From Yersinia rochesterensis (lineage in GTDB: Bacteria; Pseudomonadota; Gammaproteobacteria; Enterobacterales; Enterobacteriaceae): DNA of 64,000 nucleotides. This document shows, piece after piece, positions 12,328 through 31,610 of this stretch (its first letter is position 1; each line of letters starts with the position of its first letter). The translations under genes and the position numbers were made by a program. The DNA lies in assembly GCF_003600645.1 (NCBI RefSeq), contig NZ_CP032482.1:1054001-1118000 (forward strand), given 5' to 3'. Under the pieces are notes generated by a model. It had not been told where the DNA came from. It saw only the letters and a list, made by a program, of their open reading frames with translations, and did not search any database.

Positions 12328-14046
12328 ATGCCTCAAATTTCTCGGCAAGAATACGCGGGTCTATTTGGCCCAACGACGGGCGATAAAATCCGTTTGGGTG
12401 ATACCAATCTGTTTATCGAAATCGAAAAAGACCTACGTGGATATGGTGAAGAGTCAGTTTACGGCGGGGGTAAGTCATTACGCGATGGGATGGGCGCCAA
12501 TAACCATCTAACCCGTGATAATGGCGTACTGGATTTAGTGATAACCAACGTCACTATTGTTGATGCCCGCTTAGGGGTGATTAAAGCTGACGTTGGCATC
12601 CGTGATGGCAAAATTGCCGGGATAGGTAAAAGCGGCAACCCAGGCGTGATGGATGGCGTGACACCTGGCATGGTGGTGGGCGTCAGCACTGATGCTATTT
12701 CCGGTGAACATTTGATTCTGACCGCCGCGGGTATTGATAGTCACATTCACTTAATCTCTCCGCAGCAGGCTTACCATGCGCTATCTAATGGCGTGGCGAC
12801 TTTCTTCGGCGGGGGTATTGGCCCAACCGATGGTACCAATGGGACGACGGTAACACCTGGCCCGTGGAACATCCGCCAGATGCTGCGCTCGGTCGAAGGC
12901 CTTCCTGTCAACATCGGTATTCTGGGTAAAGGTAATTCTTACGGCCGTGGCCCATTGATAGAACAGGCGATCGCCGGTGTTGTCGGCTATAAAGTCCACG
13001 AAGACTGGGGTGCGACAGCCAATGCGATCCGACATTCATTGCGGATGGCAGATGAGATGGATATTCAGGTTTCGGTACATACCGATAGCCTGAATGAATG
13101 TGGTTATGTTGAAGATACCATTGATGCATTCGAAGGCCGCACAATCCATACCTTCCATACTGAAGGTGCGGGTGGGGGCCATGCGCCGGATATCATTCGC
13201 GTCGCCAGCCAGCCTAACGTACTGCCAAGTTCGACTAACCCAACCCTGCCGTATGGGGTTAATAGTCAAGCCGAACTGTTCGACATGATTATGGTGTGTC
13301 ATAACCTTAACCCGAATGTGCCCGCGGACGTCTCCTTCGCCGAAAGCCGTGTGCGCCCGGAAACCATCGCGGCAGAAAACGTCCTGCACGATATGGGGGT
13401 TATCTCCATGTTCTCCAGTGACTCACAAGCCATGGGGCGTGTTGGGGAAAACTGGTTGCGTGTCATGCAAACCGCTAACGCGATGAAAGCATCTCGCGGC
13501 AAATTGCCAGAAGATGCGCCGGGCAACGATAATTTCCGCGTCCTGCGTTATGTGGCAAAAATCACTATTAACCCGGCGATTGCGCAAGGTGTTAGCCATG
13601 TCATCGGCTCTGTTGAAGTGGGCAAAATGGCCGACCTGGTGCTGTGGGACCCACGTTTCTTCGGCGCTAAACCTAAAATGGTTATCAAAGGTGGCATGAT
13701 CAACTGGGCGGCGATGGGTGACCCGAACGCATCATTGCCGACGCCACAACCGGTATTCTACCGTCCAATGTTTGGTGCCATGGGTAAAACCATGCAAGAC
13801 ACTTGCGTCACCTTCGTTTCTCAGGCTGCACTGGATGACGGTGTGAAAGAGAAAGCTGGGCTGGATCGTCAGGTTATAGCGGTTAAAAACTGCCGTACCA
13901 TTTCTAAACATGACTTGGTGCGTAATGACCAAACACCAAACATTGAAGTGGACCCTGAAACCTTTGCGGTGAAAGTGAACGGCGTACATGCCACCTGTGA
14001 GCCAATTGAGACCGCGTCAATGAACCAACGCTACTTCTTTGGTTAA
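12328..14046 (+). CDS. ureC: urease subunit alpha (catalytic)
   Basis: 572 residues, full length. All active-site residues are visible: nickel ligands His139 and His141 (GIDSHIHL), the lysine to be carbamylated Lys222 ([11 protein letters not shown]), His251 (VHTDSLNE), His277 ([13 protein letters not shown]), the flap Cys324-His325 (MVCHNLNP) and Asp365 (SSDSQAMGR). The AAAGGAGCGACAG site precedes ATG 12328. The stop codon lies inside a 16-bp tandem repeat. Nothing suggests inactivation. Confidence 0.98.
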
Positions 14047-29808: not shown

Positions 29809-30570
29809 ATGGAAAAGCTACTTATTGTTAATGCTGATGATTTTGGTTTATGCAAAGGCCAAAGCTATGGGATTATTGAAGCATTTCGGCATGGTATTGT
29901 CTCATCAACCACCGCAATGATGAATTGTGCAGATATCTATCATGCAGCAGAACTGAGCAAGCAAAATCCTGCATTGCCAGTGGGCATGCATTTTGTGCTG
30001 ACTTATGGTCGGCCCTTAACGGCTATGCCATCCTTGATTGATGACAACGGTGAGTTGGGTAAATGGTTGTGGGCGCGGGCCGAGGCGGGCGAGTTGAATC
30101 TGGATGAAATCGCCCAAGAACTGGCAGCTCAGTTTGATACGTTCGTCACTGTGTTTGGCCGTCCCCCTACTCATATTGACAGTCATCACCATGTCCATAT
30201 GTTGCCGCAGATTTATCCGTTGATTGAATCTTTTGCTCACGAAAAATCACTGCCATTACGAATTGATCGCCAAGAGGCACAACAGCAGAACATTGTGCTC
30301 CACAAACTCCGCAGCACAGAGTGGTTTGATGCCGGTTTTTATGGCGAGAATTTGACGGAACAGTCATTTCTGCAATTGTTAGATTATGCAGACCAAAATA
30401 CAATTAACTCTGTTGAAGTGATGTGCCACCCAGCATTTATCGACAAAATCCTGATGACCAGTGGCTATTGTTATCCACGGTTGACCGAGTTGGATATTCT
30501 TACGTCACCAGCATTAAAACAAACTATTGCCGATCGTGGTTATCGTTTGGGATCGTATCTGGATTGTTAA
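29809..30570 (+). CDS. chbG: ChbG, chitooligosaccharide deacetylase (YdjC family)
   Basis: 253 residues. The metal-binding [10 protein letters not shown] near the N-terminus and the [14 protein letters not shown] motif with two histidines are those of the YdjC/ChbG family. It removes an acetyl group from N-acetylated, phosphorylated disaccharides, which in E. coli is needed for chitobiose use and for inducing ChbR. Start 29809 is backed by AAGGTG. Its retention beside a GH1 enzyme argues that the operon still handles chitobiose. Last gene of the operon. Confidence 0.92.
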
Positions 30571-30622
30571 ATTCTAGTTTGTGCGGGGTTTTGTGTTGTA
30601 TAAGTCGCCCAAAAATGAAAAT

Positions 30623-30648
30623 CCCAGACTTTTAGTCAGGTTTTTTTG
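30623..30648 (+). terminator. possible weak terminator after chbG
   Basis: A short bulged stem (CC..GACT-TTT-AGTC..GG) followed by seven T. Confidence 0.4.
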
Positions 30649-30660
30649 TTTGTGGAATGG

Positions 30661-30787
30661 GCGGCAGAAAAGTGCTGGTAACATTGCTTCTGCCATTCGC
30701 CTGTTTGGAAAGTCACAGGCGAACCAAGGCCCAAAGCGTGTGTGCACAAAGCAGGTCTGAGCCTACCAAGAAACGGTAGAATGGCTT
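30661..30787 (+). ncRNA. candidate structured RNA in mobile-element scar
   Basis: Three consecutive hairpins lie in 125 bases: GGCAGAA / TTCTGCC (30663-30669 with 30688-30694), TTCGCCTGT / ACAGGCGAA (30696-30704 with 30715-30723) and CTACC / GGTAG (30763-30767 with 30775-30779, inside AGCC...GGCT). This density, immediately upstream of the methyltransferase fragment, suggests a phage-type leader or antisense RNA. No family is assigned; the phage C4/CI-type antisense RNAs are a candidate comparison only. Confidence 0.4.
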
Positions 30788-30901
30788 ATGAAAAACACTA
30801 TTTATTTAAACAGTGATAGCGTTATTAACGCTGATTCTCTTTGTTATATCAAAACCCTGCTTAATAACTGCATTGACCTGATAGCAACTGACCCGCCTTA
30901 A
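30788..30901 (+). pseudogene. truncated DNA methyltransferase, N-terminal fragment
   Basis: ATG 30788 opens 37 codons ending in TAA. The product MKNTIYLNSDSVINADSL... ends ...CIDLIATDPP and stops exactly before the aromatic residue of the DPPY catalytic motif (motif IV) of N6-adenine/N4-cytosine methyltransferases, preceded by the typical (N/D)-x-IDLI-x-TDPP strand. Later motifs are absent in all frames downstream. The gene was cut by a deletion or element boundary. Such stand-alone methylases are common in prophages and integrative elements. Confidence 0.6.
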
Positions 30902-30966
30902 GGACCGTTTGTATGTAATTCGTCAACGGTTTCACACCACCGCCACACCAGCCAAACCCCACAAAC

Positions 30967-30998
30967 AAGAAAACCAGCCCTAATGAATTGGTTTTCTT
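30967..30998 (-). terminator. terminator-like hairpin downstream of tRNA-Pro fragment
   Basis: A 10-bp perfect stem aagaaaacca / tggttttctt with a 12-base loop, 10 bases beyond the CCA end of the tRNA fragment on the minus strand, so it probably terminated the original tRNA transcript. Confidence 0.6.
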
Positions 30999-31007
30999 TG
31001 GGATATT

Positions 31008-31057
31008 TGGTCGGCATGAAAGGATTTGAACCTTCGACCCCCGACACCCCATGACGG
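31008..31057 (-). pseudogene. 3' half of tRNA-Pro(GGG)
   Basis: Minus-strand sequence from the 5' side of the anticodon stem (CCGTC) through the anticodon loop ATGGGGT, variable loop, T-arm (AGGTTCAAATCCT) and acceptor end (ATGCCGACCA). It closely matches the 3' half of enterobacterial tRNA-Pro(GGG). There is no D-arm or 5' acceptor strand; upstream bases belong to the ssrA terminator. A 3'-half tRNA copy of about 50 bases is typical of an attachment-site duplicate left by an element that integrates in this tRNA. Confidence 0.75.
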
Positions 31058-31069
31058 CGTTCTATAGGC

Positions 31070-31103
31070 GAAAAAAAACCTCTGGGTTAGCAGAGGCTTT
31101 TTA
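31070..31103. terminator. bidirectional terminator between ssrA and scar
   Basis: CCTCTG / CAGAGG 6-bp stem with 6-base loop; an A-run on the left gives an eight-T tail on the minus strand, so it serves ssrA. Confidence 0.75.
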
Positions 31104-31229
31104 ATCTTCATAGGAGCCGCGTATTTTTTGCGTATCCTTTTTGGTCCAAACTAGGTCAGTGCTTCGTCCGGTCATTTATCATAAGTTACTGGTTTATATG
31201 ATACTGTCCGGTCACTGTCCTATCAAAAG

Positions 31230-31610
31230 TGGTGGAGCTGGGGGGATTTGAACCCCCGTCCGAAATTACTACGCCGTCGGCACTACATGCTTAGTCCAGT
31301 CATTACATTCGCCGGTTAGCTGCGGACGGACACGCCACTAACAAACTATCCTGATTGGGTTTAACGCTTTCACCCCAGGCAAGGTGTCCACGCGATCTCT
31401 TTTAGGTTTGACCTCTCTTGATCCCCGTCCTAAGAGCGGAGGCTAGGGAGAGAGGGAATCTTCAGTTTCTTAGGCTGATTAAGCTGCTAAAGCAGCAGAT
31501 TCGTATTGCGAGTCGTTTGCAATTATTTTTTTTGCGGTTTTTTACGAGGCCTCCGCACCTCGGCATGCACCTTGGGTTTCGCGAATCCCGTCGAATCCAG
31601 AATCAGCCCC
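31230..31610 (-). ncRNA. ssrA: transfer-messenger RNA (tmRNA)
   Basis: The 5' end GGGGCTGATTCTGGATTCGA (complement of 31610 downwards) and 3' end ..CCCCCCAGCTCCACCA (ending at 31230) form the tRNA-Ala-like part. The resume codon and tag reading frame occupy 31520 down to the TAA at 31479. The encoded tag is ANDSQYESAALAA (AANDSQYESAALAA with the charged Ala), three residues longer than the E. coli tag and with the conserved -ALAA end. tmRNA rescues stalled ribosomes with SmpB, encoded just upstream on the same strand. About 381 bases mature length. Confidence 0.97.

What the first reader, a model, noticed from the sequence alone, without database searches (positions are those of the whole stretch)
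30600..31230. Decayed integrative-element scar beside ssrA, with a 3'-half tRNA-Pro(GGG)
Between the chbG 3' end and tmRNA lie, in about 600 bases, a structured leader, a methyltransferase cut at its DPP(Y) motif, a tRNA-Pro(GGG) 3' half with its CCA and a terminator-like hairpin, and two copies of GTCCGGTCA (31166, 31206). The 3' half of a tRNA starting exactly at the anticodon stem is what a tRNA-integrating element leaves as its attachment core. That it sits next to ssrA, itself a common integration target, suggests two successive integrations or a recombination between islands. Seen: fragment, its limits, neighbours. Known: tRNA 3' ends and ssrA are integrase targets. Inferred: history.
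Basis: partly seen in the sequence, partly recalled or inferred. Interest (0 to 1): 0.72.

Follow-up and report, generated by a model that had tools for sequence, protein, structure and literature searches.

The report
Prophage scar holding undescribed leader RNA
The 0.66-kb stretch beside the tmRNA gene is the leftover of a bacterial virus that once sat there, and it still holds a copy of a conserved folded RNA that precedes DNA-modification genes in many other phages and matches no family in the RNA library searched.

Summary
The interval is a deletion scar of a prophage that integrates into the 3' end of ssrA, the kind proven for Citrobacter phage PhiNP. In 14 of the 16 Yersinia genomes where chbG and ssrA lie close on one contig, 10-68 kb separate them; here 659 bp remain. 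The methyltransferase piece and its leader match the Y. proxima ssrA prophage in order and strand. The bases touching ssrA are its attachment arm, with GTCCGGTCA twice, 40 bp apart.
The tRNA-Pro(GGG) half is phage cargo: 6 of 10 IMG/VR contigs with this arm carry it at the same junction (a seventh by eye), as do two other Yersinia genomes. It looks like the old proL attachment core of a phage line that now uses ssrA (inferred).
The 'structured leader' proved the most interesting part: a conserved ~145-nt RNA (18 of 36 pairs with two-sided changes; 31 of 36 in a wider, structure-fitted alignment) that precedes phage DNA methyltransferase or com genes in 66 of 68 pattern-selected virus loci, with no Rfam 15 family above threshold. 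One strand can pair instead with the start-codon region, suggesting a translational switch. That mechanism is inferred, and this copy is probably dead.

The parts
29809..30570 (+). chbG (YdjC-like), host gene bordering the scar
   Evidence: Pfam YdjC; placed in 25 of 25 genus genomes
30571..30577 (.). left junction between chbG and phage-derived DNA (somewhere in these bases)
   Evidence: G019 prophage match starts at 30578
30578..30645 (+). phage DNA upstream of the leader, with decayed terminator-like hairpins
   Evidence: 85% to G019 prophage over 30578-30639
30646..30787 (+). conserved structured leader RNA (P1-P5), decayed copy
   Evidence: model R1 match 129.3 bits
30788..30901 (+). 5' end of a phage N6/N4 DNA methyltransferase gene, cut after 37 codons
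   Evidence: 91% to the G019 gene over 30795-30900; family PF01555 for the intact relatives
30902..30967 (-). proL-type phage attachment arm (TGGTGTGAAAC-type repeat), start of the late-end piece
   Evidence: 93-95% to DNA beside proL in other Yersinia over 42 bp
30968..30999 (-). terminator-like hairpin of the tRNA-Pro unit
31008..31056 (-). tRNA-Pro(GGG) 3' half with CCA: vestigial proL attachment core
31061..31108 (.). terminator-like hairpin shared with ssrA prophage ends
   Evidence: 88-98% in G006, G008, G013, G020, G022
31113..31229 (.). ssrA-phage attachment arm with GTCCGGTCA at 31166 and 31206 (arm sites for the integrase: my reading, untested)
   Evidence: 98-99% beside ssrA in G019 and G013; PhiNP match
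31230..31610 (-). ssrA (tmRNA), the integration target

Best explanation
The interval is what is left of a lambda-like prophage that integrated into the 3' end of ssrA. One large deletion joined the methyltransferase gene to the late end beside ssrA. Another removed the integrase end, the distal attachment copy and further DNA, up to within 8 bp of the chbG stop codon. The tRNA-Pro half rode in as part of the phage: its ancestors used proL, and exchange of the attachment-integrase cassette for an ssrA-type one left the old proL core and arm stranded between the late genes and the new arm. The leader is a copy of a conserved structured RNA that heads phage DNA-modification genes. Shown: shared order and sequence, att repeats in relatives, the phage-borne tRNA half, covariation of the RNA. 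Inferred: the cassette exchange, the order of the deletions, and the RNA's role, most likely control of translation by covering or freeing the start region. This copy looks dead because its gene is cut.
For: chbG-ssrA gap of 10-68 kb in 14 of 16 comparable genomes. G019 (a contig as long as that of Yersinia proxima IP37424): prophage from ssrA to a 37-bp ssrA repeat 39 kb away, integrase at that end, arm 98%, methyltransferase and leader 90-93% in the same order and strand. PhiNP carries the arm at its tail end and was shown by experiment to use the ssrA 3' end (PMC6456863, passages). tRNA half, hairpin and arm together in 6 of 10 virus contigs, in G008 and G020, and in contig G027 at the end of one prophage. 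Late-end DNA beside the half in G033 is 91-93% identical to DNA beside genuine proL in G012 and G001. RNA.
Against: No integrase and no second ssrA repeat remain in G000, so the integration here is read from relatives. No genome seen has the leader piece, the tRNA half and the arm in one intact prophage. Own proL is 91% alike, so the half cannot be dated from it. For the RNA: single-sequence folding is unremarkable; in the 34-sequence set the number of further pair types does not exceed shuffles (421 of 500 reach it); most weak matches are close relatives of one another.
Confidence: 0.8

Rival explanations
1. Two elements integrated here one after the other, one at ssrA and one bringing the proL core, and both decayed in this chromosome.
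For: Tandem insertions at ssrA do occur: in G008 and G020 later DNA lies between the block and ssrA.
Against: The junction of tRNA half and arm is the same in virus contigs and genomes with different neighbours, and in G027 it ends a single prophage.
Confidence: 0.12
2. The tRNA half is kept for a use of its own, for instance as part of a two-way transcription stop between phage late genes and ssrA.
For: Two hairpins that read as terminators in both directions flank the half, and the half is conserved in several contigs.
Against: Other ssrA prophages (G019, G005, L067, L072, L075) have an ordinary hairpin and no tRNA half there.
Confidence: 0.15
3. The conserved leader is not an RNA element but a DNA site or a small gene.
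For: Stretches are near-invariant, and some phage annotations place a small ORF across it.
Against: Paired columns change together and arms fit their own partner better than swapped ones (P5 and P3, P2). The ORF from ATGGGC runs 4-45 codons with shifting frame in the 29 of 34 sequences that have it, and substitutions fall 89, 78, 61 on codon positions 1, 2, 3 in 15 comparable pairs.
Confidence: 0.08

Closest known systems
Citrobacter rodentium phage PhiNP and its ssrA integration (PMC6456863, passages read)
   Same: Attachment arm next to the ssrA 3' end, late genes on that side, xis and an integrase-type gene toward the other
   Different: About 70% identity over 128 bp of the arm; no GTCCGGTCA repeat; no tRNA-Pro half seen there
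Prophages at tRNA genes such as proL
   Same: The half begins at the anticodon stem and carries CCA and terminator, as an attachment core should; displaced halves occur beside proL in G001, G011, G014 and G021
   Different: Here the half lies at ssrA, inside the end of another phage type
Mu com-mom translational control (PMC6483171, start of abstract seen)
   Same: A phage DNA-modification module controlled after transcription; many distant members of the RNA precede a com gene
   Different: The Mu com-mom region has no match to the RNA model; the enterobacterial members seen have no com between RNA and methyltransferase
Phage-associated promoter element (PAPE) of Pseudomonas syringae lscB/C (PMC3899960 and PMC3973379, passages read)
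   Same: A mobile phage-derived leader with com ahead of cargo genes
   Different: The lscB leader on pDC3000A has no match over its com leader, filters off

Membership tests
ssrA-integrating (PhiNP-type) prophage | Attachment arm directly next to the ssrA 3' end | tested here: met
   98-99% to the prophage ends at ssrA in G019 and G013; PhiNP match
ssrA-integrating (PhiNP-type) prophage | Second copy of the ssrA 3' end at the far side | tested here: not met
   One ssrA match in G000 at E 1e-5, while G013, G019 and G022 show a second, short one; hence a remnant, not a member
ssrA-integrating (PhiNP-type) prophage | Integrase gene of its own | tested here: not met
   No integrase-sized frame in the interval
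Complete tRNA-Pro gene | Both halves of the cloverleaf | tested here: not met
   ARAGORN finds none; fragment only
Structured cis-acting leader RNA | Helices kept by paired changes | tested here: met
   18 of 36 pairs two-sided, covariation 0 of 500 shuffles; 31 of 36 in the fitted wider set
Structured cis-acting leader RNA | Fixed place 5' of a set of related genes | tested here: met
   66 of 80 methyltransferase loci have it upstream; 66 of 68 pattern-selected matches precede a methyltransferase motif or com
Structured cis-acting leader RNA | Changes expression of the gene behind it | not testable with these tools
   Needs reporter work
Any family of Rfam 15 | Score above the family's gathering threshold | tested here: not met
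   None over the leader; sub-threshold opposite-strand overlaps only: P26 in L112 (E 0.12) and AbsR28 in L106 (E 1.7); ctRNA_pGA1 in L238 (33.5 bits, gathering 45)
Phage-associated promoter element (PAPE) | The lscB leader carries this RNA | tested here: not met
   Best match 5.8 bits, inside the gene

The most novel reading that the evidence does not exclude
The leader belongs to a widespread, undescribed class of bistable regulatory RNA that controls translation of phage DNA-modification genes (N6/N4, D12 and C5 methyltransferases, and com). One strand of hairpin P3 pairs either inside the RNA or with the start-codon region, switched by an unknown signal such as a metabolite of the methylation cycle, a Com-like protein or the stage of infection.
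Probability: 0.35. Interest if true: 0.85.

Novelty: new variant of a known kind. Interest (0 to 1): 0.6.

Why it matters
The scar shows how an attachment region can be rebuilt from two phages, with the tRNA half left as a fossil of the former target. The RNA matters more: phages must time self-modification against host restriction, and a conserved leader shared by unrelated methyltransferase families and by com would be a common control point. It can be tested directly in E. coli K-12 with reporter fusions to a coliphage leader.

Tried and rejected
P2-loop pseudoknot with the conserved AGCCTAYCAA: rejected, own pairs score below swapped ones (9.0 against 10.1, 300 of 300 shuffles reach it). 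P4 arm swap on the distant set: failed (own -1.1, swapped -1.7; segments badly cut), although P4 pairs in 92.9% of cells in the fitted alignment. P3 arm swap gave meaningless energies for very short segments and is not used; on the 34-sequence set P3 passes (0 of 2000). P5 by fixed columns pairs poorly (47.5% of cells); the alignment-free test supports it (own -8.0, swapped -6.85, 0 of 2000 as low). Leader as a coding gene: rejected. Leader as part of the PAPE: rejected. Mu com-mom as a member: no match at E 0.05. Searches of whole genomes gave few hits: by DNA 5 of 295 in the order, by model 6 of 394 in the order and 3 of 369 in the class; the tool scored only 2 (DNA) or 7-8 (model) candidates per genome, so these are not frequencies. 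Papers: nine searches listed no account of this RNA or of the proL/ssrA composite in titles and abstract starts; subscription journals and preprints are not covered, and only passages of four papers were read.

Full report
What is there. The window lies at C1:1054001-1118000 of a 4.45-Mb genome that the tool groups with 24 others of one genus. Every feature in the finding is present at the stated places.

The locus is an insertion hot spot. I placed ssrA and chbG in 25 of 25 genus genomes. In 16 they lie within 70 kb on one contig: 14 of these have 10.1-68.3 kb between them, and G000 (659 bp) and G003 (about 670 bp) are the two short ones. In two (G009, G021) they are far apart; in seven they are on different contigs. 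G003 has a small gene there (about 115 codons by eye) and no match to the scar in this interval; it is the better model of an empty site. A similar small gene stands beside chbG in G008 but not in G000, so the scar may also have lost host DNA.

Which element. In G019 a prophage runs from ssrA to a 37-bp copy of the ssrA 3' end 39 kb away, with the integrase next to that copy and late genes toward ssrA (gene names other than the integrase by eye). Its end at ssrA is 98% identical to window 31113-31229. Inside it, 25 kb from ssrA, lies the methyltransferase with its leader, 90-93% identical to window 30642-30900 and in the same order and strand; DNA upstream matches 30578-30639 at 85%. G013 has the same arm (99%) and repeat. 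Citrobacter phage PhiNP matches the arm at its tail end, with xis and a DUF3596 protein (integrase-type, from memory) toward the other end; its integration into the ssrA 3' end, with a 25-bp core, was shown by experiment (PMC6456863, passages read). GTCCGGTCA occurs twice, exactly, 40 bp apart, in 16 of 18 Yersinia-type arms compared (8 genomes, G000 included, and 10 virus contigs that were picked by a pattern containing the second copy); G006 and G008 keep one exact copy and PhiNP has none. That these are integrase arm sites is my reading, not a test.

The tRNA half. This genome has a complete proL elsewhere, 91% identical over 68 nt, so the half is not a recent copy of it. Ten IMG/VR contigs carry the ssrA arm. 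Six of them match a pattern that joins the tRNA half to the hairpin; a seventh, L069, has a variant junction seen by eye. G008 and G020 have the same block, 3.3 and 5.2 kb from chbG, with later DNA between it and ssrA. The clearest case is contig G027 (41.85 kb): an integrase and a 38-bp ssrA core near one end; a tail fibre gene, an acyltransferase gene, the tRNA half, the ssrA arm and ssrA at the other. Beyond that core lies part of a second integrase gene, outside this prophage. The G027 and G019 integrases have the same three Pfam domains.

Why a cassette exchange. Downstream of genuine proL in the genus I see three kinds of repeat (TGGTGTGAAAC, ATGGTAAAA, AGGGGAAAC), and each kind also occurs beside the half in a composite (by eye). 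In G033 the last 113-122 bp before the half are 91-93% identical to DNA beside genuine proL in G012 and G001. The half thus marks where a proL-type late end meets an ssrA-type arm, and the near-identical tRNA sequence is an easy place for further swaps: both variants of the half occur with at least two arm kinds (by eye). One exchange followed by swaps explains this more simply than repeated fusions, but I built no tree.

The leader. About 150 nt upstream of the methyltransferase start are conserved in phage or phage-like DNA of Hafnia, Shigella, Providencia, Morganella, Escherichia, Plesiomonas and Rahnella, where annotated after an antiterminator Q gene and a small ORF and, in SfV, before holin and lysin. 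Of 80 virus loci kept because they encode this methyltransferase (594 were confirmed among 600 capped stretches), 66 have it upstream: 60 near full length and 6 partial; one of the other 14 has no upstream DNA. From 66 unique leaders I dropped 4 partial ones and thinned the remaining 62 below 93% identity to 34. RNAalifold chose P2 but a different outer pairing from mine. With the structure I wrote down, 80.6% of cells pair, against 37-45% when partners are slid by 1-3 columns; 18 of 36 pairs show two-sided changes (2 of 500 shuffles reach that), and no shuffle of 500 reaches the covariation score; the count of further pair types is not above shuffles (421 of 500). Folded alone the window's leader is unremarkable (z -1.13).

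Distant members. I searched the 80 listed, and 68 match the model at E 0.01 or better: 31 above 115 bits, one cut at a contig end, 36 between 19 and 51 bits. Some of the strong ones lie in contigs that also fed the model. An alignment of 45 matches fitted to the model, which leans toward the structure, has 31 of 36 pairs with two-sided changes and covariation 0.371 against 0.137 shuffled, 0 of 500. Less dependent on the fit: in 30 thinned sequences the P2 arms bind their own partner at -15.8 kcal/mol against -7.9 when swapped, 0 of 2000 as low.

What follows it. By protein motifs that I wrote from memory, 49 of the 68 have a DNA methyltransferase within 700 nt downstream (35 N6/N4, 7 D12, 6 D12 with Com, 1 C5 with Com) and 0 of 68 upstream; random windows of the same loci give 293 of 5000. 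One more has Com alone. Of the 17 without any motif, 16 have a Com-like gene right after the RNA; the 17th (L231) has none seen, and one match ends at a contig end. So 66 of 68 precede a methyltransferase or com. Pfam confirms single examples of Com, D12, C5 and N6/N4 methylases, a lectin and a colicin M relative; a ParB-like call stays below its cut-off (7 proteins). Many of the 68 are close relatives, so these are not independent events.

How it might work. Of the 45 rows, 42 could be cut for this test and 20 remained after thinning: the P3 region pairs with the stretch that follows AGCCTANCA, up to and over the start codon, at -15.1 kcal/mol against -13.1 when swapped, 0 of 2000 as low. Examples change together: CTGCAAGCC with GGCTTTGCAG, CTGTAAACC with GGTTTGCAG, GTGAGCC with GGCTCAC, GTGAGAC with GTCTCAC. 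The same strand forms P3, so the two pairings exclude each other, as in a switch that covers or frees the start region. The signal is unknown. In the scar the gene is cut at codon 37 and the GATC that most relatives have before the start codon is lost, so this copy is probably inert.

Verdict. The scar is a remnant of a known kind of prophage with an unusual double attachment end. The RNA is the part worth following: I rate the family as very likely real and the switch model as a hypothesis. No Rfam 15 family reaches threshold over it, and nine literature searches listed no account of it.

Noticed in passing
G000:C1:3091250-3091537 (L030, L045, L193): A second copy of leader and methyltransferase start in the same genome, 84-86% identical to the scar copy; whether its gene is whole was not checked.
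   Followed up: partly
ssrA genes of the genus: Two kinds of ssrA: 97-100% identical to the window's in 19 of 25 genomes and 87-89% in 6 (G003, G006, G010, G011, G022, G024). Tags read were ANDSQYESAALAA in the first kind, ANDENYALAA (G006) and ANDQDYALAA (G022) in the second. G010 has two ssrA matches.
   Followed up: no
G006:C1:1983567-1983729: Hairpin and ssrA-type arm 830 kb away from ssrA, followed by an ssrA 3' piece that seems broken by an insertion; a rearranged or second-site remnant.
   Followed up: no
L088 (G001), L092 (G014), L093 (G011), L090-L091 (G021): Displaced tRNA-Pro halves near complete proL genes, 0.8-26 kb away; in G021 the integrase seems broken by a transposon.
   Followed up: partly
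L204, L208, L268 and similar loci: In Pseudomonas-type phage loci the RNA and com precede bacteriocin-like genes (colicin M relative in L204, B-lectin in L268; L208 by eye) instead of a methyltransferase.
   Followed up: partly
G002:C1:894601-895360: chbG is split into two frames.
   Followed up: no
window 12476-12778, minus strand: Rfam 5'_ureB_sRNA match, 58.5 bits, above threshold.
   Followed up: no
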